This document shows positions 5,768-29,756 of a stretch of DNA of 62,962 nucleotides, in pieces. The stretch spans positions 1 to 62,962 of the forward strand of contig CAMYVX010000006.1 in the NCBI GenBank assembly GCA_947302535.1, in the 5' to 3' direction. Source of the stretch: an uncultured Caryophanales bacterium. Its GTDB lineage: Bacteria; Bacillota_I; Bacilli_A; RFN20; CAG-826. The stretch's first letter is position 1; each line of letters starts with the position of its first letter. Both the position numbers and the translations under genes were made by a program. The notes beneath the pieces are model-generated. The model was not told the DNA's origin. It made no database searches and saw only the letters and a program-made list of their open reading frames with translations.

Positions 5768-7198
5768 CTATTTGTTAATAATACTTAAATATATTTTGTA
5801 ATATTCATCCGCACTCTTTTGCCAAGAGTTGTCAGTTAATAAAGCATTCTTCATTAATTGCTTCCTTAAAGGAAGATTTTCCCAACAATTATAAGCAAAC
5901 TGACAAGTTTGATTAATTTCATGTTGGTTGTAATAATCAAAGCCAAAGCCGTTTGCTTCACCTTCATTAGTGCCATCATAAAGAACAACTGAATCTTTTA
6001 ATCCGCCCGTTCTTCTTACTAAAGGAAGGGCTCCGTAACGTTGAGCAATCATCTGTGTTAATCCACAAGGTTCAAATAATGAAGGAACTAAGACAATGTC
6101 GCTGGCTGCATATATTTGATGTGCAAGAGCGTCGTTATAGCCGATATAGATAGCAAGATTTTTAGGATATCTTTTTCTTAAATCTTCTAACCATTGTTCA
6201 TAACGGTATTCTCCAGAACCAAGAACAACAGCGGAGCAACCTTGCTTTAACATTTCTTCTAAAGCTGGTAATGCAATATCTAAACCCTTTTGCCAAGTAA
6301 GTCTAGTCACTAATGAAAATAGAGGCTTACCATAATCATAAATATTCAATTTTCGCATTAATTCTAGCTTATTTTTGTTCTTTTTGCGGAAATAGTCATT
6401 CGCGTTATAGTTTTCAAAAATCAATTTATCTTCTCTTGGATTAAACTCGTCGTAGTCAATTCCGTTAAGAATTCCCACAAAATCATATTCGCGGAAACGA
6501 AGTACTCCATCTAATCCCATACCACCTTCTGGGGTTAATAATTCATAACGGTGATTTGGAGAAACGGTTGTAATCTTATCAGAATATACAATCGCCGCTT
6601 TTAAAGTTGATACTCCACCTTTAAATCTAATAGAGCCATTTTCATAAACAGAATATGGAAGTCCATATAATTCTCTTGTTGCAGAAGCGTCAAGCAATCC
6701 TTGGAAAGCCGGATTATGAATAGAGAAAACAAATTTAGTTTTCTTGAAATAATTATTCGCATATTCATCTTCCTTGATTAAACAAGGAAGCATACCCACA
6801 TGCCAATCATGGATATGAATGATATCCGGAATATCCATCAATTGATAAAGAAGCTCTTTAACTGCGAGAGTGAAAAAAGCAAATCTTTCCCCGTCATCAT
6901 CAAAACCATAGAATTGATCACGATGGAAATAATGACCATCAATAAAGAAATAACGGATGTCCTCGTGTTTTGTAAAATAAACATCACATCCAACCTGTCT
7001 CCAACCAACGGCTACGAGGAAAGTATTAATTTTTTCTAAGTCTTTAAATTGTTCTTTAACACCTTGATATAAAGGGGTAAAGATGGAAACTGATTCACCT
7101 TTTTTTACTAATTCTGAGGATAAGGAATAAACAACATCCGCTAATCCACCAGTCTTAGAAAAAGGACGTGACTCAGCGGCTACCATATAAATTTTCAT
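5768..7198 (-). CDS. glgA: glycogen synthase (ADP-glucose type)
   Basis: GT5-family glycosyltransferase that extends alpha-1,4-glucan from ADP-glucose. It carries the N-terminal ADP-glucose-binding motif FSKTGGLADVVYSL (residues about 13-26), the HIHDWHVGMLP segment and the C-terminal FEPCGLTQMIAQRYG with TGGLKDSV (GT-B fold, retaining mechanism). Length 476 aa is standard. Its ATG overlaps the glgD stop by one base, giving a tight glgC-glgD-glgA unit. Branching enzyme and phosphorylase are not in the window. Confidence 0.96.
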   Translation of the reverse strand: MKIYMVAAESRPFSKTGGLADVVYSLSSELVKKGESVSIFTPLYQGVKEQFKDLEKINTFLVAVGWRQVGCDVYFTKHEDIRYFFIDGHYFHRDQFYGFDDDGERFAFFTLAVKELLYQLMDIPDIIHIHDWHVGMLPCLIKEDEYANNYFKKTKFVFSIHNPAFQGLLDASATRELYGLPYSVYENGSIRFKGGVSTLKAAIVYSDKITTVSPNHRYELLTPEGGMGLDGVLRFREYDFVGILNGIDYDEFNPREDKLIFENYNANDYFRKKNKNKLELMRKLNIYDYGKPLFSLVTRLTWQKGLDIALPALEEMLKQGCSAVVLGSGEYRYEQWLEDLRKRYPKNLAIYIGYNDALAHQIYAASDIVLVPSLFEPCGLTQMIAQRYGALPLVRRTGGLKDSVVLYDGTNEGEANGFGFDYYNQHEINQTCQFAYNCWENLPLRKQLMKNALLTDNSWQKSADEYYKIYLSIINK

Positions 7199-8316
7199 TA
7201 GACGATAACCCCTTTCTTAATATAGAGAATTTCATTCTCTTCACCACTCAATTCGCTGGAATTAAGAATTTTAACTTGCTTATCAGCAAGAACGTGATTA
7301 ATCTTAACACCTTGACCGACCTTAGTGTGAGTAAAAAGAATAGAATTCTTTACGACCGCACCTTCTTTAACAACAACATCACGAGAAATAATCGAATTAA
7401 TTACTGTTCCCTTAATAATGCTACCATTAGCGATAAAACTATTTTGTACAACAGCTTTAGGTCCATATAAAACAGGAGGAGTGTTATGAGAGATTGTATA
7501 AATTGGCCAATCATCTAAAAATAATTTTTGGCGGTTCTCATACTTTAATAAATCCATGGAATGTCTTACGTAATCCTGTAAAGAAAGGATTGGATAAACA
7601 ACGCCATCAAATCTATAAGTAGCAATACTCATTTGTTGATTGGCACAGACATGCTTAATCATTTTTCTTAAACTATAAAGAATCGAGACTTCTTTGGATA
7701 ACTCGCAAAGACTTAATAAAGCGTATTTAGAAATAACAAATGTTTCTAAAGAAATATCAGCCACTCTTTTTCTAGCGGCAATACGATAGAAATCTTTTAC
7801 TGTTCCATCAGGATTAAGTTCAAGACCGTCACAATTTTTAAAATTAGCTTCCGCATTATTGGAGTGGATATAAGCAAGGGTAATATCTCTACCACTTTCA
7901 ACATGTGCTTTGATTAATGGACGGAAATCAAATGACATTAAGAAGAATGGGGGCGTAAAAACAAAGTAATCTGCATCAGCATAAACAAAGTAATCTCTAT
8001 TGCTTAAGATATTAGAAATATCTGTATTAAATTTCACATCCGCAAAGACTTCCTCGTTAGTAAAGAAACGAATGTCTCCTGTCTTTGTATTAGGGATCCA
8101 AGCATGTCCATCTTTAATGTGATCATGAATGGAAGTACCTTTTTTCTCAACTAAAATTCCTATTTGACTAATATGCGAATTAGTGAAATTCGACAACGCA
8201 AAATCCATTAAACCATAACGCCCTAAAAACGTATTAGCGGCTAATGGTCTTCTCTCAGTTAAACCCCCAAGATAAGGTCCATCGTGAAGATTACAAATAC
8301 CAACAATTTTCGCCAT
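7198..8316 (-). CDS. glgD: GlgD-type glucose-1-phosphate adenylyltransferase subunit
   Basis: Non-catalytic or regulatory partner of GlgC in the Firmicute GlgCD heterotetramer that makes ADP-glucose. It keeps the nucleotidyltransferase fold and C-terminal left-handed beta-helix (hexapeptide repeats around NSFIANGSIIKGTVINS). The glycine-rich GGxGTRL loop of GlgC is replaced by CNLHDGPYLGGLTERR, as is usual in GlgD. I set the start at the ATG at 8316 (MAKIVGICN), which has AAAGG upstream at 10 nt; an alternative GTG two codons earlier overlaps the glgC stop. Length 372 aa is typical. Confidence 0.92.
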   Translation of the reverse strand: MAKIVGICNLHDGPYLGGLTERRPLAANTFLGRYGLMDFALSNFTNSHISQIGILVEKKGTSIHDHIKDGHAWIPNTKTGDIRFFTNEEVFADVKFNTDISNILSNRDYFVYADADYFVFTPPFFLMSFDFRPLIKAHVESGRDITLAYIHSNNAEANFKNCDGLELNPDGTVKDFYRIAARKRVADISLETFVISKYALLSLCELSKEVSILYSLRKMIKHVCANQQMSIATYRFDGVVYPILSLQDYVRHSMDLLKYENRQKLFLDDWPIYTISHNTPPVLYGPKAVVQNSFIANGSIIKGTVINSIISRDVVVKEGAVVKNSILFTHTKVGQGVKINHVLADKQVKILNSSELSGEENEILYIKKGVIV

Positions 8317-8321
8317 AACCA

Positions 8322-9446
8322 CTACGCCTTTCTAGAAATCAAAACGATTTCTTTGCTATTAAGATTTATTCTTTCATTTTCTTCAATAACTGTTCCAGCC
8401 GAAATAATCGCATTAGAAACATGGGCTCCAACTTTAATTCTTGCCCCTTCCATAATGACACAGTTTTTACAAACTGTTTTTTCTTCTAAAACCGCATCAG
8501 AAGAAATCACACAACAATCAGCTTTACCAAGAATAATGGCTCCTTGATTAGCAATGGAGCGTGTCACTGAGCCTTCAGGTCCAACATATTGAGGAACCGA
8601 ACTAGGATCCTCACTATAAATTCTGGTTGATAAATCACCATCATATAAATCCATTAAATGTCTATCTAAAGCAATATCCATATTGGCTTGATGTAGGGAG
8701 GCAATTGTTCCTACATCTCTCCAATAGCCTTTAAAGCGATAAGCTTGAATCTTTTTATTACTAGCAAGCATCGCGGGAATGATATCTTTACCGAAGTCAT
8801 GGGAACTATTTTCATTCTTCATATCTTCTTTTAAAAGTTTAGATAATACCTTCCAGGTAAAAACATAAACACCCATACTTGCTAAATTGCTTTTTGGTTT
8901 ACGGGGCTTTTCTTGAAATTCAACAATACGATCTTTTTCGTCAGTAATAACAATTCCGAATCTAGAAGCTTCGCTTGGATCGACTTCAATACAAGAAATA
9001 GTGACATCCGCTCCACTTGAAATATGGAGGTCAATCATATCGTTATATTTGGTTTTATAAATATGGTCACCAGAAAGAATCAAAACATAATCGGCTTCCA
9101 TATTATCTAAAAAGTCGATATTACGAGAAATCGCATCAGCGGTTCCCTTGTACCAGTTAGATCCTTCTTCGGTTTGTTTTGGAGATAAAGTTGCCATTAA
9201 AGCGTGGACTCCATTAAGTCCCCACTTTTCTCCGTTACCTAAATATGAATCTAAAGAGGTTGATTCATACTGAGTTAAAACGCCAATTGTGTTAATACCA
9301 CTATTAGCGCAATTACTTAAAGGAAAATCGATGATACGATAACGAGCAGCAAAGGAAACAGCGGGTTTCGCAACCTTTTTTGTCAAAGACTCTAAACGAG
9401 TTCCTTTTCCACCGGCTAAAATCATCGCGACAACTTTATTGTTCAT
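8322..9446 (-). CDS. glgC: glucose-1-phosphate adenylyltransferase, catalytic subunit
   Basis: Makes ADP-glucose from ATP and glucose-1-phosphate, the committed step of glycogen synthesis. Motifs: MILAGGKGTRL (residues about 8-18), RIIDFPLSNCANSGI, LSGDHIYK (metal Asp) and FQEKP (sugar phosphate binding), then a beta-helix of hexapeptides. The frame is open further upstream, but the ATG at 9446 has GAGG at 8-nt spacing and aligns with the family N-terminus, giving 374 aa. First gene of the glgC-glgD-glgA(-leuS) unit. A possible promoter (TTTAAA, 17 nt, TAACAT ending at 9467) lies in the divergent spacer but is weak. Confidence 0.95.
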   Translation of the reverse strand: MNNKVVAMILAGGKGTRLESLTKKVAKPAVSFAARYRIIDFPLSNCANSGINTIGVLTQYESTSLDSYLGNGEKWGLNGVHALMATLSPKQTEEGSNWYKGTADAISRNIDFLDNMEADYVLILSGDHIYKTKYNDMIDLHISSGADVTISCIEVDPSEASRFGIVITDEKDRIVEFQEKPRKPKSNLASMGVYVFTWKVLSKLLKEDMKNENSSHDFGKDIIPAMLASNKKIQAYRFKGYWRDVGTIASLHQANMDIALDRHLMDLYDGDLSTRIYSEDPSSVPQYVGPEGSVTRSIANQGAIILGKADCCVISSDAVLEEKTVCKNCVIMEGARIKVGAHVSNAIISAGTVIEENERINLNSKEIVLISRKA

Positions 9447-9553
9447 AATTAAAACCTCGCACATATATGTTAACACACGCGCATATTCATTTAAACAAAG
9501 TCATATTTTTTCTTTAAAAAACCTATTTTTTCAGTAAACTTATACATAGCGAT

Positions 9554-11630: not shown

Positions 11631-12493
11631 TTATAAAACCTCCTAGTTTTAAATATCGCTTCTTGGGAAATCTTTAAATATTCCTGATATGCAATTTCCG
11701 GAATCTTTTTTTGATTCACTGCTTCTTTAATATCACACTTACCTTCAGAAATATGTAGACAATTGGGATAATAGCATTTTTCATATCTTTCATAACAGCC
11801 AGGGAAATACATGGCTAAATCTTCTTTATATAATTCTAAGTCAAGTGAAGAAAACCCTGGAGTGTCAACAATAAAACCATTTTGATAAGGAAGAAGTATA
11901 ACTTCTTTAGTCTTATGCTTTCCTCTTCCTAAAGCCCAGGAGTATTCTCCCACTTCACGAGCAAAATTCTCATCGATAGAATTAACTAGAGATGATTTAC
12001 CAACGCCAGTTTGTCCAATAAGACATGAAGTCTTGTTAGCAAAAATAGATCTAACTTCGTCTAGACCTTCCTTTGTCTTATTTGAAACAATATGAATCTC
12101 GATATTCAAAGTATTAAAAACATCTAAAATCTCTTTAACTTTGTTATCATCATTAAATTCATCTGATTTAGTTAAAATTATTATTGATTTAATTCCATTG
12201 GAATTAGCGTATGTAATATATTTAAACAAAAGTGAATAAGAGAACTCGGGCTTAGTTAGTGATTGAACAATAATCATTTGGTCTAGATTAGCCACTACTG
12301 GTCTTTTCAAGAAAGACGTACGTTCATAAATAAAAGTAATAACACAGTTCTCTTCATTTACATCAACTCTATCGCCAACAACTGGTTTAGTTTTTTTAAT
12401 ACGGAAAAGACCACGAGCGGGCACTTTAAAAATTATTCCATCTGCAAGAACAGAATAGATACCACAACTAAGTGCAACAATCCTTCCTTCCAT
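11627..12493 (-). CDS. rsgA: ribosome small subunit GTPase RsgA
   Basis: Circularly permuted GTPase that checks late 30S assembly and releases on GTP hydrolysis. Order seen: N-terminal OB-fold (residues 1-70), G4-like LTKSDE, then G1 GQTGVGKSSLVNS, G3 DTPGFSS, and a C-terminal zinc site with Cys and His (CYERYEKCYYPNCLHISEGKC). Length 288 aa is normal. Its start overlaps the prkC stop by one base (TAATG). Confidence 0.97.
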   Translation of the reverse strand: MEGRIVALSCGIYSVLADGIIFKVPARGLFRIKKTKPVVGDRVDVNEENCVITFIYERTSFLKRPVVANLDQMIIVQSLTKPEFSYSLLFKYITYANSNGIKSIIILTKSDEFNDDNKVKEILDVFNTLNIEIHIVSNKTKEGLDEVRSIFANKTSCLIGQTGVGKSSLVNSIDENFAREVGEYSWALGRGKHKTKEVILLPYQNGFIVDTPGFSSLDLELYKEDLAMYFPGCYERYEKCYYPNCLHISEGKCDIKEAVNQKKIPEIAYQEYLKISQEAIFKTRRFYK

Positions 12494-22313: not shown

Positions 22314-23084
22314 GTGAAAAAAGTAGTCCTATTTCTTTTAACTAGTTTATGCCTTGTCTCGTGTAAAGACGCTAACGAGAACGCTTTAATGTTAGTTAAT
22401 GATTACGATTATGTAACAAATAATAATGTTACTAATTTCATAGATTTAAATGGCAAAGATGTCATCAATAGAATTAGTGAAAGAGATGACTTCATTTTGT
22501 TTTATTATTCAAGGACTTGTTCCAGCTGCAACGAAACGAATGAAACACTTCAAAAATACATTAATGATTATCATTACATCATCAATAGAGTGGATGCTGA
22601 TGTATATACAAAAGATTTGTTAGAAAAAACATATCCAGATGTCTTTATGGAACATCCAAATCCTCAATTAATGTTCTTTAAAAATGGTGAGTTAACCTAT
22701 TCTCATGGATATATTAATCTAAAAAACTATGATGCATTTAAGTCTAGGAATAAGAATCGGGTGAAAGAGAGTAATCTATATCAATTAACAACTCCAGAGG
22801 CAATAAAGGAATTTATTAATAATAATCCAAATACAACCATTTTCACTTATGACAAGAACAACGCGTATGAATTAAATTATTATGTACAAAAAATTAAAAA
22901 GACTCATAATCCAGACAATGATGAAAAAACTGTGATTATTGAAAAAAACTCCTTGTTTTGCATGAGTTATTTAGAAATTTATAAGGCGATAGGATTAGAA
23001 ACTACTCTTGATAGATCACTAATAATCAATATGGAAAATGGCCTTGTAAAAGGTTATGGTGACTATGTATTTGGTGAAAGGTAG
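22314..23084 (+). CDS. thioredoxin-like lipoprotein, probably two Trx-fold modules
   Basis: A 256-residue exported protein. The N-terminus KKVVLFLLTSLCLVSCKD is a short signal peptide with lipobox LVSC, so it should be lipid-anchored at C17. Module 1 has FILFYYSRTCSSCNET (redox CxxC as CSSC) and NPQLMFFKNGELTYSHG with the cis-Pro, a thioredoxin fold. Module 2 (from about residue 155) looks Trx-like (TIFTYDKNN, IIEKN, LIINMENG) but lacks CxxC. The start is a GTG; promoter-like GATAAT ends about 8 nt before it and there is no SD. Likely an extracellular thiol-disulfide protein; its partner is unknown. Confidence 0.75.
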   Translation: MKKVVLFLLTSLCLVSCKDANENALMLVNDYDYVTNNNVTNFIDLNGKDVINRISERDDFILFYYSRTCSSCNETNETLQKYINDYHYIINRVDADVYTKDLLEKTYPDVFMEHPNPQLMFFKNGELTYSHGYINLKNYDAFKSRNKNRVKESNLYQLTTPEAIKEFINNNPNTTIFTYDKNNAYELNYYVQKIKKTHNPDNDEKTVIIEKNSLFCMSYLEIYKAIGLETTLDRSLIINMENGLVKGYGDYVFGER

Positions 23085-23106
23085 TGGCTAAATTCCACTA
23101 CTTTTT
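23081..23106 (+). terminator. intrinsic terminator of the thioredoxin-like lipoprotein gene
   Basis: GTAGTGG, 7-nt loop, CCACTAC, then TTTTT. The stem includes the gene's own TAG stop and overlaps the 3' end of the convergent atpC. Confidence 0.75.
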
Positions 23107-23501
23107 GCTTTCAAATAATTTAATTCTGTTATTAGCTCTTTTAAGCGCTAATTCAGCTCTAATACTATCAAGGGATTCGGCTTTATCACTTAACCTTTTT
23201 TCCGCTCTTTCTTTTGCGGCTTTAGCTCTTAATATATCAATATCATCAGCGGCTTCAATAGAATCGAGCATTAAAGTCACTTTCTCTTCGTTGATGTTAA
23301 TCATGCCGCCACCAACAGCGTACTTATAAACATTAGCTTTCATGTTTATTTCTAAAATAGAAATAGCTACATCAGAGATAAGTGGAGCATGGCCTGGAAG
23401 AATGCCTAAAAGATAGTTAGTCGTTTGTACTTTAATAAAGTCGACATCCTCTTCTAGATATTTTCCAAAAGGAGTAAAAATAACTAACTTTAAAGTCTTC
23501 A

Positions 23502-23502
<1 letters not shown>
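23098..23502 (-). CDS. atpC: ATP synthase epsilon subunit
   Basis: Central-stalk regulatory subunit of F1. The N-terminal beta-sandwich (LKLVIFTPFGKYLEEDVDFI, LGILPGHAPLISDV, AVGGGMININ) and the C-terminal two-helix domain (RAKAAKERAEKRL) are both present; 134 aa is normal. Last gene of the atp operon, its ATG overlapping the atpD stop by one base. Confidence 0.95.
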
Positions 23503-25749
<2,247 letters not shown>

Positions 25750-25754
25750 AATTC

Positions 25755-27263
25755 TTATTCTTCGTTATGAGCAAAAAATTCTTTAATCGCGTCCACTAAC
25801 GCGGTTTCATTGTCCGCTGTTAACTCTTTCTTATCCATAATATCTTCAAAGATATTTGGGTTAGAATTATTAACGTACTTATAACAATCATTTAAAACCT
25901 TGCGGACATTAGAAAGTTCTAAATTATCGAGATATTTGTTTTTAGCCATATAGAGTTCAAAAACTTGTTTAGCTAAACTACGAGGAGCATATTGCTCTTG
26001 TCTTAAAACTTGAAGTAAAACTTCACCATGTTTCAAAATGTTGACTGTACTGGCATCTAAATCACTACCAAATTGGGAGAATGATTTCATTTCCATAAAG
26101 CTTGCTAAATCAATCTTTAAAGACTTTGCCACTTGCTTTGTGGCCTTGTATTGAGCCGCACCACCAACACGTGAGACAGAAAGACCGCTATCAATTGCTG
26201 GTCTTTGACCGGCATTAAAAGCATCAGTCGTTAAGAAAATCTGACCATCAGTAATAGAAATAACGTTGGTAGGAATATAGGCCGAAATATCACCAGCTTG
26301 AGTTTCAACAATAGGAAGAGCGGTAATAGAGCCACTACCATATTCAGGAGCTAACTTACAAGCTCTTTCTAATAAGCGGGAATGGAGATAGAAAACATCA
26401 CCAGGGTAGGCTTCTCTTCCAGGACTACGTTTAAGTAATAAAGACAAGGTTCTATAAGAAACAGCGTGTTTACTTAAATCATCGTAGATGATTAAAACAT
26501 CTTTACCTTGTTCCATCCATTCTTCAGCCATAGCAACTCCAGCATAAGGAGCTACATAAAGAAGTGGAGCGGGTTCGCTAGCCGTAGCAGCAACCACTAA
26601 GGTATATTCCATCGCGCCATGTTTTCTTAAACGGTCCACAATTTGTGCCACTGTTGAATTCTTTTGTCCAATAGCGACATAAATACATAAGACACCTTTA
26701 TCCTTTTGATTGATAATGGCGTCAATAGCAATCGCCGTTTTACCAGTTTGACGATCACCAATAATAAGTTCACGTTGTCCGCGTCCAATTGGAGTAATCG
26801 CGTCAATCGCGGTAATACCGGTTTCAAGTGGAGTGTCAACACTTTTACGAGTAATAACACCTGGAGCAATTCTTTCGATGGGTCGAGTCTTATTTGTTTT
26901 AATTTCTCCACCGCCATCAATTGGTTGTCCTAAAGCATTAACAACACGTCCTAATAAAGCATCTCCAACAGGAACAGTCATTACAGTTTTGCTTCTTTTT
27001 ACAGTATCGCCTTCTTTAATAAGTTGGTCGTCCCCTAAAAGCACCACGCCAACAGAATCAGTTTCCAAATTTAAAACCATACCATAAACATCACTAGGGA
27101 ACACCAATAGTTCACCAAGCATGGCATCTTTTAAACCATAGACAATAGCGATTCCATCGCCAACAGAAACAACTGTGCCAACATCATTACTATCAATCTT
27201 GGTCTCATAGTTTTTAATTTGTTCTTTAATCAAGGCGCTAATTTCATTTGCATTAATTTTCAT
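25755..27263 (-). CDS. atpA: ATP synthase alpha subunit
   Basis: Non-catalytic nucleotide-binding F1 subunit. [15 protein letters not shown] (P-loop), [26 protein letters not shown] and [21 protein letters not shown] are all canonical. Length 502 aa is standard. It follows atpH by 11 nt with a good SD (AAGGAGGG). Confidence 0.97.
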
Positions 27264-27274
27264 AACGTCCCTCC

Positions 27275-27802
27275 TTATTTCAAAAGGTCTTTTTTCATCA
27301 TTTCAATTCGATTCTTAATCGAGCCATCATAAATATGATCGTTAATCACAACCTTAACCCCTCCGATAATTGATGGGTCAATGCGACTAATGAGTTCAAT
27401 TTCTTTGTTCTCTTTTTTAGAGATTTCCCTCTCAATGGCTTTAAGGGTCTTTTCATCAAGTTTGGATATTGAATAAATTAATCCTTCATCCACTCCACGA
27501 TAAGCATTGCAATAAGAGTTAAAAGCCTGCAAAACTTCAATTAAATAGGAAATTCTGCCATTTTTAATCATAATTTTAAGTAAAGCAATAACATCTTCGT
27601 CAACACGAACTAAAGTCTTATCAAGAATACTTTGTCTTTCTTCTATGCTAAGAAATGAAGAATTTAAAAGCATCACAAAATCACTATTAGACTCGATAAG
27701 TTTGATAAGTTCCTTAACCTCTTGTTGAAGAGGGATAACCTTATTCTTATCTAACGCTAAAGAGAAAAGAGCTTGTCCATAACGTGAAGCGATTTCATTC
27801 AT
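27275..27802 (-). CDS. atpH: ATP synthase delta subunit
   Basis: Peripheral-stalk subunit joining F1 to subunit b. N-terminal [15 protein letters not shown] and C-terminal [33 protein letters not shown] segments match the OSCP/delta family (175 aa). Located 4 nt after atpF in the usual order. Confidence 0.94.
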
Positions 27803-27806
27803 AACT

Positions 27807-28358
27807 TTACTTCAACTTTTCTACAAATTCCTCTGCTAATCGTGCGTCATCATCTTTATTGATTTCGCGTTTTAAAATTTCTTCGCTGGCGCTTAAAGCA
27901 ATATCCACCATCTCATTATGAATAGCGTCTAAAGCTTCTTGTTTACTATTTTCAATATCGATCTCAGCTTGCTTTTTCATCTTCAAAACATCGTTACGAG
28001 TTTCTTCAAGAATGTTTTCTCTATTAATCTCAGCTTGATTATTAGCGTTTTCAATAATCATTGCCGCTTCTTTTTTAGAAGCAAGAATTAGTTCTTGAGA
28101 TTCAATCCTGTTAGTTTCCGCAGCGGCGTTTTTCTCTTCGGCTTCGCGGATATTGTTTTCAATATATTCCGCTCTTTTATTAAGCATCTTTTTAATTGGC
28201 TTATAAGCAAAGATGAAAACCACAATAAGGAGAACAACTAAAGCACCGAATTGTACGACAAAAGAAAGCCAACTAGGAATCAATTTGTTATTGATGCCTT
28301 GACTAATTTCATCGCCAATATCAGCGAATACGCGAGAAAGTGCAAAAGCACGATTCAT
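27807..28358 (-). CDS. atpF: ATP synthase subunit b
   Basis: Peripheral stalk. A short N-terminal segment (residues 1-28), one membrane helix (about 30-52, SFVVQFGALVVLLIVVFIFA) ending in YKPIKKMLNKR, then a long charged coiled coil. Length 183 aa is typical. It is preceded by an SD (AAGGAGGACAA) in the gap after atpE. Confidence 0.94.
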   Translation of the reverse strand: MNRAFALSRVFADIGDEISQGINNKLIPSWLSFVVQFGALVVLLIVVFIFAYKPIKKMLNKRAEYIENNIREAEEKNAAAETNRIESQELILASKKEAAMIIENANNQAEINRENILEETRNDVLKMKKQAEIDIENSKQEALDAIHNEMVDIALSASEEILKREINKDDDARLAEEFVEKLK

Positions 28359-28372
28359 GTAATTTGTCCTCC

Positions 28373-28588
28373 TTAATTAATGAATAAACATAAGATAGCC
28401 ACTAATAGGGCATAAATAGCGGTTGTTTCAACCAACGCACATCCTAAAATCATTGTGGTACGAATTTTGGAATATCCTTCTGGGTTACGGGAAATGCCAT
28501 TGATAGAAGCCACACAAACCATAGCTTCACCAATTGCGTTGGCCATACCAGACATCATCGCTAATGCGGCGCAAAATGCACTTGACAT
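28373..28588 (-). CDS. atpE: ATP synthase subunit c, two-carboxylate variant
   Basis: Two-helix proteolipid of the rotor, 71 aa with the polar loop SRNPEGYSK (33-41). The ion-carrying Glu is E54 in ALVETTAIYALL, with T55, T56 and Y59 matching the S/T-T-x-x-Y arrangement of Na+-binding c subunits. Helix 1 carries a second carboxylate, E21 in AIGEAM, exactly 33 residues earlier, the same spacing as E32/E65 in the Na+-coupled Fusobacterium nucleatum rotor. The helix-1 glycine repeat is partly replaced by Ala (GMANAIGEA). Na+ coupling is inferred from these residues. Strong SD; operon position normal. Confidence 0.93.
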   Translation of the reverse strand: MSSAFCAALAMMSGMANAIGEAMVCVASINGISRNPEGYSKIRTTMILGCALVETTAIYALLVAILCLFIN

Positions 28589-28591
28589 ATA

Positions 28592-29353
28592 TTAATTTCC
28601 TCCTTTCCTTGATAATTCCACATTCTCTTCATCTTCAGGAACTTCTTGTCCAATTAAAATAACTGATAAAGAGATAAAAACAGTCGTCTGGATAAATCCA
28701 GAGAATAAATCAAAATAAGCATGTAAGACTGGGGTAACAAATGGAGGCAAAATAGCCGCACCCACAGCCCCACCATCTGGGAAGGTCACTGTCATAAATG
28801 AGAAAATCATTCCTGATAATGACTCTAAAGCGTTATAAACGATAGTCATTAAAACCCAACCAGAAATGGCGTTACCAAATAAACGTAAACTTAAAGAAAG
28901 TAACGGTGCCCACATCGAAATCAAATTGATGGGAAGGAACAATGGAAGAGGTTCAACATAACGTTTGAAATATTTCCATTTTGTAAACCTTGCCGAAGTG
29001 ATGTGAATCAAAAGGAAGGTTGTAAAACCTAGTGATAAAGGAACCGCCATATAGGTGACAGGTGAAGGTAAACCGGTTAAACCAAAAATAAAGGCAATGA
29101 ATAAGTAAACAGCAACACCAAAAACAAATCCGCCCATATTTGGAAGTCTATTACCAATCATATTACGAGTGAAATCATCAAAGAATTTCACACCTAATTC
29201 AGTAATCAAAAGTAAGCCTTTAGGCTTTTTTAAGGGATCTTGAAAACGTGCTTGAATACCAACGATGATCGCTAAAATCATCATGATACCCATGACAATT
29301 AATGACGAGATAACTTCTGGAGCGATAACCATTTCGAAGAAATTATCAAACAC
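28592..29353 (-). CDS. atpB: ATP synthase subunit a
   Basis: Membrane stator subunit forming the ion half-channels with the c ring. About six membrane helices in 253 aa; the essential Arg is in SLSLRLFGNAISGW, and the C-terminal HAYFDLFSGFIQTTVFISLS helix is recognisable. It lies between atpI and atpE, 3 nt from each neighbour at its closest, with good SDs. Confidence 0.95.
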   Translation of the reverse strand: MFDNFFEMVIAPEVISSLIVMGIMMILAIIVGIQARFQDPLKKPKGLLLITELGVKFFDDFTRNMIGNRLPNMGGFVFGVAVYLFIAFIFGLTGLPSPVTYMAVPLSLGFTTFLLIHITSARFTKWKYFKRYVEPLPLFLPINLISMWAPLLSLSLRLFGNAISGWVLMTIVYNALESLSGMIFSFMTVTFPDGGAVGAAILPPFVTPVLHAYFDLFSGFIQTTVFISLSVILIGQEVPEDEENVELSRKGGN

Positions 29354-29354
29354 G

Positions 29355-29756
29355 TTATTCTTCTTCCTCCTCCTTAAAAATTAAATGACTAAGGGCAAGG
29401 GATATTGTAGAAAGCAAATATCCTCCAACAACAGCAAAGATATTAAATATTTTGATATCTTTAACATAATATAAATAACCAACTAACAAAAGAATACCAG
29501 CAAGAATCAAAAGTCTTGCAATAATCACGATAATCGTGCCAACAAGTTTCTTATCCTCGTTTTCTTTGTTGGTTACTAGAAACATAACCAGGAGGCAAAG
29601 TACACCATATAATCCTCCTAGCAACAAGCCTTGTGGTATATCTGGTAGATGATTAATCCAAAGAGGAATCATCCCCAAATTAATAACAAGCAAAGCACAT
29701 AAATCCAAAGAGAGAGCTTTGATATAAATATTTAAATGACGCCACTTCTTTTTCAT
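29355..29756 (-). CDS. atpI: AtpI-like membrane protein at the head of the atp genes
   Basis: A 133-residue protein with four membrane helices (about 12-32, 40-61, 73-96, 102-124) and a charged tail of Glu. It occupies the atpI position before atpB, where a c-ring assembly or ion-uptake factor is normally encoded. Sequence identity of this family is low, so the name rests on size, topology and location. Only one base separates it from the phosphofructokinase stop. Confidence 0.75.
   Translation of the reverse strand: MKKKWRHLNIYIKALSLDLCALLVINLGMIPLWINHLPDIPQGLLLGGLYGVLCLLVMFLVTNKENEDKKLVGTIIVIIARLLILAGILLLVGYLYYVKDIKIFNIFAVVGGYLLSTISLALSHLIFKEEEEE

What the first reader, a model, noticed from the sequence alone, without database searches (positions are those of the whole stretch)
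28373..28588. Two-carboxylate c subunit suggests a Na+-driven ATP synthase
E21 and E54 are 33 residues apart, the same as E32/E65 of the Fusobacterium nucleatum c ring, and E54-T55-T56-x-x-Y59 matches the Na+-ligand pattern. The helix-1 glycine repeat is also partly Ala (GMANAIGEA), a change linked with altered ring size in alkaliphiles. Ion type and ring number may both differ from B. subtilis.
Basis: partly seen in the sequence, partly recalled or inferred. Interest (0 to 1): 0.6.

Follow-up and report, generated by a model that had tools for sequence, protein, structure and literature searches.

The report
Sodium-type rotor subunit of ATP synthase
A small gut bacterium carries the rotor protein of a rotary ATP-making or ATP-burning pump whose ion-binding residues all match pumps known to move sodium instead of protons; the binding site is conserved across its relatives, while the glycine pattern that sets rotor size is not, so these bacteria could show whether sodium-driven rotors must have eleven subunits.

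Summary
The minus-strand ORF 28588-28373 is atpE, the 71-aa F-type c subunit, third gene of a complete atp operon. E21, E54, T55, T56 and Y59 align without gaps to E32, E65, S66, T67 and Y70 of the Fusobacterium nucleatum Na+ ring. Its four best PDB sequence matches are Na+ rings. In 65 distinct c subunits sampled from its GTDB family, E/D21, E54, S/T55 and Y59 never change; T56 is Cys in seven. Sister families have the complete set (15/15). Na+ coupling is therefore the best reading. It is unproven, because the similar Burkholderia N-type site (E, E, T, Met, Y) proved H+-selective.

Two corrections. The 1.17-Mb genome (95% complete) gave no match for OAD/Mmd/Gcd-beta, Nqr/Rnf, complex I/Mrp or membrane pyrophosphatase, and this is its only c-type gene. 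An ATP-driven Na+ pump is likelier than a Na+-driven synthase. The helix-1 glycine change is real and larger in relatives: all characterised Na+ F-type rings are c11 with GxGxGxG, but 57 of 65 family members keep at most two of the four glycines (this one GxAxAxG). Ring size may have drifted while the Na+ site stayed fixed. Ring number cannot be computed here.

The parts
28373..28588 (-). atpE, F-type ATP synthase subunit c (71 aa), the feature in question
   Evidence: ORF and translation; Pfam ATP-synt_C 60 bits; NCBIfam ATP_synt_c just over cut-off; only c-type gene in the genome
28526..28528 (-). codon of E21, second carboxylate on helix 1 (= F. nucleatum E32, I. tartaricus Q32)
   Evidence: alignment; E/D in 65/65 family rows
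28412..28429 (-). codons E54-T55-T56-A57-I58-Y59, main ion carboxylate plus Na+ ligand and lock residues
   Evidence: alignment to E65-S66-T67-x-x-Y70; conservation
28523..28549 (-). codons G14 to A22, degenerate helix-1 glycine motif GxAxAxGxA
   Evidence: alignment; family, sister and outgroup comparison
28592..29353 (-). atpB, stator subunit a (GTG start), with the conserved Arg at R157 (LSLSLRLFGN)
   Evidence: Pfam ATP-synt_A 100 bits; alignment to chloroplast and PS3 subunit a; R157
29355..29756 (-). small membrane protein in the atpI position, upstream of atpB
   Evidence: position only; no Pfam or NCBIfam match
27807..28358 (-). atpF, subunit b
   Evidence: TIGR01144 over cut-off
27275..27802 (-). 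atpH, subunit delta
   Evidence: TIGR01145 over cut-off
25755..27263 (-). atpA, subunit alpha
   Evidence: TIGR00962, 782 bits
24910..25749 (-). atpG, subunit gamma
   Evidence: TIGR01146 over cut-off
23502..24896 (-). atpD, subunit beta (likely start ATG 24896, [13 protein letters not shown]; the mechanical ORF extends upstream into atpG)
   Evidence: TIGR01039, 828 bits, match begins at residue 59 of the long ORF; AAGGAGG upstream of 24896
23098..23502 (-). atpC, subunit epsilon
   Evidence: TIGR01216 over cut-off

Best explanation
This is the rotor (c) subunit of the organism's single F1Fo-ATPase, and the ring is most likely Na+-coupled. In each inter-subunit groove Na+ would be held by E54, by a permanently protonated E21, by T55 and the L52 carbonyl of the neighbouring subunit, and by a water on T56; Y59 would lock E54. 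The proton on E21 would not be transported. With no known primary Na+ or H+ pump found in this small, presumably fermentative genome, the enzyme most likely runs mainly as an ATPase that exports Na+, supplying membrane potential and low internal Na+ (useful to a lineage predicted to lack a cell wall). The residue set and its conservation are shown. Coupling ion, direction, and a ring number other than 11 (suggested by the degenerate glycine motif) are inferred.
For: Ungapped match of all side-chain Na+ ligands to 3zk1; the four top PDB sequence hits are Na+ rings (A. woodii 4bem twice, F. nucleatum 3zk1, I. tartaricus 1yce). AlphaFold hairpin at pLDDT 92; its best Foldseek match is 4bem and 3zk1 is third, 1.8 A rmsd over 70 columns. 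E/D21, E54, S/T55, Y59 invariant and T56 58/65 in the family; full set in 15/15 sister-family sequences. One c-type gene, so no separate V-type Na+ ATPase. No OAD-beta, NQR2/RnfD, H_PPase or Proton_antipo_M (38) in a 95%-complete genome. Precedent: A. laidlawii has a (Na+-Mg2+)-ATPase that exports Na+, and most sequenced acholeplasmas encode a predicted F1Fo Na+ ATPase (PMC4221730). Predicted wall-less families of the order RFN20: PMC10868615.
Against: Sequence predictions of Na+ coupling have failed: the B. pseudomallei N-type ring with E30/E61/Thr62/Tyr66 is H+-selective (PMC5376962), although it has Met where this protein has T56. No Na+ symporter of the SNF, SSF or SDF families was found, so no user of a Na+ gradient is identified beyond one CPA2-type antiporter. 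Even F. nucleatum's ring prefers H+ at equal concentration (PMC3692424), so low Na+ or low pH could give H+ coupling. The altered helix 1 could alter the groove geometry.
Confidence: 0.65

Rival explanations
1. A proton-coupled F-ATPase that keeps Na+-type residues as a hydrogen-bond network, as in the B. pseudomallei N-type ring. E21 is permanently protonated and E54 carries H+.
For: Two-carboxylate rings with H+ coupling exist: S. pneumoniae, M. tuberculosis (PMC3692424) and B. pseudomallei, where the Na+ prediction was wrong (PMC5376962). No Na+-linked symporters of three families found.
Against: Unlike B. pseudomallei, which has Met at the water-holding position, this protein has T56. T56 is T in 58/65 and Cys in 7/65 relatives, and the other ligands are invariant at about 51% mean column identity, which indicates selection on the whole set. 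Nearest solved relatives are Na+ rings.
Confidence: 0.22
2. One reading: a Na+-driven ATP synthase running mainly in the synthesis direction, powered by a Na+ pump.
For: Site matches F. nucleatum, whose enzyme makes ATP from a Na+ gradient set up by glutaconyl-CoA decarboxylase (PMC3692424).
Against: No OAD/Mmd/Gcd beta subunit, Nqr/Rnf, membrane PPase or complex I/Mrp subunit was found in the 95%-complete genome; each profile found its targets in control genomes.
Confidence: 0.12

Closest known systems
Fusobacterium nucleatum c11 ring (PDB 3zk1/3zk2; PMC3692424)
   Same: Two carboxylates 33 residues apart, the full ligand set E/E/(S or T)/T/Y, single-hairpin c subunit, 28 of 69 aligned residues identical.
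   Different: F. nucleatum keeps GxGxGxG with GPG in helix 1 and is c11; here helix 1 is GxAxAxG with Asn for Pro. F. nucleatum has a decarboxylase Na+ pump; none was found here.
Acetobacterium woodii c2/c3 subunits (PDB 4bem)
   Same: Best fold match and, with A. woodii c1, best PDB sequence match; ETTGIY against ETTAIY.
   Different: A. woodii has Gln in place of E21, the full glycine motif, and a mixed ring with a V-type-like c1.
Burkholderia pseudomallei N-type c17 ring (PMC5376962)
   Same: Two carboxylates plus Thr and Tyr; helix-1 AxGxAxAxG, whose GxAxAxG core is the pattern seen here (register inferred from its E30).
   Different: Met where T56 is; shown to be H+-selective; N-type operon order with atpD and atpC first and atpQ/atpR.
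Acholeplasma F1Fo Na+ ATPases (PMC4221730) and the Paracholeplasma vituli c subunit (locus L146)
   Same: Predicted Na+ F-ATPases in wall-less relatives; L146 also reads G-A-A-G in helix 1 and has ETTGIY.
   Different: L146 has Gln at position 21. Acholeplasmas also encode V-type ATPases; this genome has no second c/K gene.

Membership tests
F-type ATP synthase subunit c (PF00137) | two-helix hairpin, R-x-P loop, acidic residue in helix 2, inside an atp operon | tested here: met
   60 bits against cut-off 24; helices 2-34 and 36-69; R34-N35-P36 loop; genes a, b, delta, alpha, gamma, beta, epsilon adjacent
Na+-coupled F-type rotor | Q/E at I. tartaricus 32, E65, S/T66, polar 67, Y70 | tested here: met
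   E21, E54, T55, T56, Y59 in ungapped alignment; signature as described in PMC2359735 and PMC3692424
Na+-coupled F-type rotor | Na+ stimulates activity, protects from DCCD, and is bound in the ring | not testable with these tools
   needs purified enzyme or ring
Two-carboxylate Na+ rotor (F. nucleatum type) | second carboxylate on helix 1 facing the site | tested here: met
   E21 = E32 by sequence; monomer model superposes on 3zk1 at 1.8 A. Side-chain geometry in a ring not modelled.
Two-carboxylate Na+ rotor (F. nucleatum type) | GxGxGxG helix-1 motif shared by characterised Na+ F-type rings | tested here: not met
   GxAxAxG here; at most 2 of 4 glycines in 57/65 family rows
Two-carboxylate Na+ rotor (F. 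nucleatum type) | c11 stoichiometry | not testable with these tools
   no oligomer modelling or imaging available
N-type ATPase | atpD and atpC at the front of the operon, atpQ/atpR, present beside a normal F operon | tested here: not met
   normal order I-B-E-F-H-A-G-D-C; single c gene in genome
Alkaliphile-type c subunit (B. pseudofirmus) | AxAxAxA in helix 1 and PxxExxP around the ion Glu | tested here: not met
   GxAxAxG; A51 and A57 flank E54, no prolines

The most novel reading that the evidence does not exclude
In this family the Na+ site was held fixed while the ring-size motif of helix 1 was lost repeatedly, so these are natural Na+ F-type rotors with rings other than c11 (probably larger), running as Na+-exporting ATPases in wall-less gut bacteria. 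That would break the pattern in which every characterised Na+ F-type ring is c11.
Probability: 0.35. Interest if true: 0.6.

Novelty: new member of a known kind. Interest (0 to 1): 0.4.

Why it matters
All Na+ F-type rings solved or counted by 2013 were c11 and had the glycine motif, and the authors of PMC3692424 left open whether Na+ coupling requires eleven subunits. Here the Na+ residues and the glycine motif have come apart across dozens of related natural sequences, which gives a ready test set. It also suggests that a large uncultured gut and rumen group depends on Na+ rather than H+ for its membrane energetics.

Tried and rejected
Na+ users: NhaC, SNF, SSF and SDF absent; one CPA2-like exchanger present, its ion unknown. 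A second rotary ATPase: rejected, one c/K-type match only. N-type ATPase and alkaliphile type: rejected on operon order and motifs. I first expected the glycine motif to have been lost once in the family. The subunit-a tree does not support that: sister families nest inside the family on moderately supported branches, and at least about 10 switches between >=3 and <=2 glycines are needed. Ring modelling was not possible: the structure tool takes single chains and no coordinates were given, so E21-E54 proximity rests on homology, on the monomer superposition and on the known structures. A search for papers on RFN20 and ATP synthase gave nothing specific.

Full report
What is there. The minus-strand ORF 28588-28373 encodes a 71-residue F-type c subunit with a strong Shine-Dalgarno. 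It is the third gene of a run atpI-position protein, a, c, b, delta, alpha, gamma, beta, epsilon (29756 down to 23098). The atpI-position protein had no family match and is placed by position only. Subunit a has the conserved arginine (R157 in LSLSLRLFGN). The genome (1.17 Mb, 40 contigs, 94.9% complete) has one ATP-synt_C match, this one, although the same profile found c or K subunits in all 14 control genomes. So there is a single rotary ATPase as far as the assembly shows.

Lineage. The genome belongs to the same GTDB family as G002. The G002 contig (48,888 bases, match at 11735-11935) corresponds to DVMV01000024.1, 'Candidatus Alloenteromonas pullicola'. PMC8035907 places 'Candidatus Enteromonas' (type species pullistercoris; it also names E. 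pullicola) in order RFN20, family CAG-826. That the NCBI genus Alloenteromonas is this renamed genus is my inference from the identical species names. PMC10868615 predicts that CAG-826 and CAG-288 lack peptidoglycan and do not sporulate. Wall genes were not tested in this genome.

The ion site. Aligned without gaps over 69 columns to the F. nucleatum ring 3zk1 (28 identities), the residues pair as E21/E32, L52/V63, E54/E65, T55/S66, T56/T67 and Y59/Y70. In 3zk1 these are the Na+ ligands, the water holder and the locking tyrosine (PMC3692424). The best PDB sequence matches are in order A. woodii c1, A. woodii c2, F. nucleatum and I. tartaricus, all Na+ rings; the first H+ ring (Spirulina, 2wie) comes fifth. 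Spirulina shares Q/E/Y but lacks the hydroxyls at 55 and 56. The AlphaFold model is a confident hairpin (mean pLDDT 92.3) that superposes on 4bem and 3zk1 at 1.8 A, and on H+ rings equally well, so fold does not decide the ion.

Conservation. From 224 family genomes, 203 had a match. I read 65 distinct c sequences from it. Position 21 is E or D, 54 E, 55 T/S (54/11), 56 T/C (58/7), 58 I, 59 Y, against a mean column identity of 51% in a 39-sequence subset. In 15 distinct sequences from other families of the order, all 15 have the full set with two carboxylates. Two carboxylates are therefore a feature of the lineage and not an oddity of this genome. Limits: the sample favours higher-scoring relatives; weak matches (groups g24, g28, g29, part of g19) were not read, and one more distant named relative (L136) has Val at position 56.

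Helix 1. At positions equivalent to I. tartaricus G25/G27/G29/G31, this protein has G/A/A/G. In the family 57 of 65 rows keep two or fewer glycines, 51 of 65 have at least one residue other than G/A/S there, and the commonest pattern is V/P/A/G (22 rows). Sister families are mostly G/G/G/G (9 of 15), as are Clostridia and Erysipelotrichales with a full Na+ set. On a tree of subunit a, the window falls within a V/P/A/G clade (12-row set, SH-aLRT 98), and glycine-rich and glycine-poor states interchange at least about ten times (quick tree, 35 of 82 branches weak). So the site stays and the motif drifts. Glycine-to-alanine or -serine changes in this motif go with wider or larger rings: c13 in B. 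pseudofirmus (PMC2914638) and c17 in B. pseudomallei, whose AxGxAxAxG contains the same GxAxAxG core (PMC5376962). PMC3692424 notes that all characterised Na+ F-type rings are c11 with the glycine motif, and that mutating it in I. tartaricus raises the count without necessarily losing Na+ coupling. A ring larger than c11 is thus a fair prediction, not a result.

Direction and role. Searches of the genome gave no OAD/Mmd/Gcd beta, NQR2/RnfD, membrane pyrophosphatase or complex I/Mrp subunit. NhaC, SNF, SSF and SDF (64) were absent too; one CPA2-type exchanger is present. With no pump to charge the membrane, the enzyme most likely hydrolyses glycolytic ATP and exports Na+. This parallels A. laidlawii, whose (Na+-Mg2+)-ATPase exports Na+ and keeps internal sodium low (PMC4221730). 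About 5% of the genome may be missing, other pump types (cytochrome oxidases, P-type Na+ ATPases) were not searched, and fermentation is inferred rather than reconstructed.

Why not certain. PMC5376962 shows a two-carboxylate ring with Thr and Tyr that was predicted Na+ and is H+-selective; it lacks the residue equivalent to T56. PMC3692424 stresses that even the F. nucleatum ring prefers H+ intrinsically and works with Na+ only because Na+ is in large excess. I put Na+ coupling at about 0.75 and net hydrolysis, given Na+, at about 0.85.

Verdict. The interpretation should be narrowed to a predicted Na+-coupled F-ATPase, probably an ATP-driven Na+ pump, of a known kind. The part worth pursuing is the separation of a fixed Na+ site from a drifting ring-size motif.

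Noticed in passing
L039, L040, L045, L050, L051 and others (family and sister c subunits): 14 of 65 family sequences, and most sister-family sequences, have Asp just before the ion glutamate (LDE[ST]), a third carboxylate next to the site. The window protein has Val there.
   Followed up: partly
genomes G091, G092, G094, G096, G098, G099, G102, G104-G107, G109-G112 (genus g19): Many genomes of one genus in the family have two c-type genes instead of one; the second was not read.
   Followed up: no
L008, L015, L018, L023 (genus g7): The second carboxylate is Asp instead of Glu (VADG/IADG), with Ala in place of the preceding glycine: a natural variant of the two-carboxylate site.
   Followed up: no
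L037, L043, L053, L063, L068: Water-holding Thr56 is Cys (ETCGIY), together with an S/C/S/G, A/C/S/G or A/A/S/G helix 1: possible weakening of the Na+ site.
   Followed up: no
L139 (record titled Staphylococcus epidermidis MAG, CAMBSI010000007.1): On the subunit-a tree this groups inside the RFN20-like clade (100%), so the record's organism name is probably wrong.
   Followed up: partly
window 5768-9476 (-): Glycogen-type cluster: a starch/glycogen synthase-like gene and two ADP-glucose pyrophosphorylase-like genes (GlgC/GlgD-like), suggesting glycogen storage in a very small genome.
   Followed up: no
window 29355-29756 (-): Protein in the atpI position with no Pfam or NCBIfam match.
   Followed up: no
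window 22314-23084 (+): Thioredoxin/bacilliredoxin-like lipoprotein (BrxC match near cut-off) facing the end of the atp operon.
   Followed up: no
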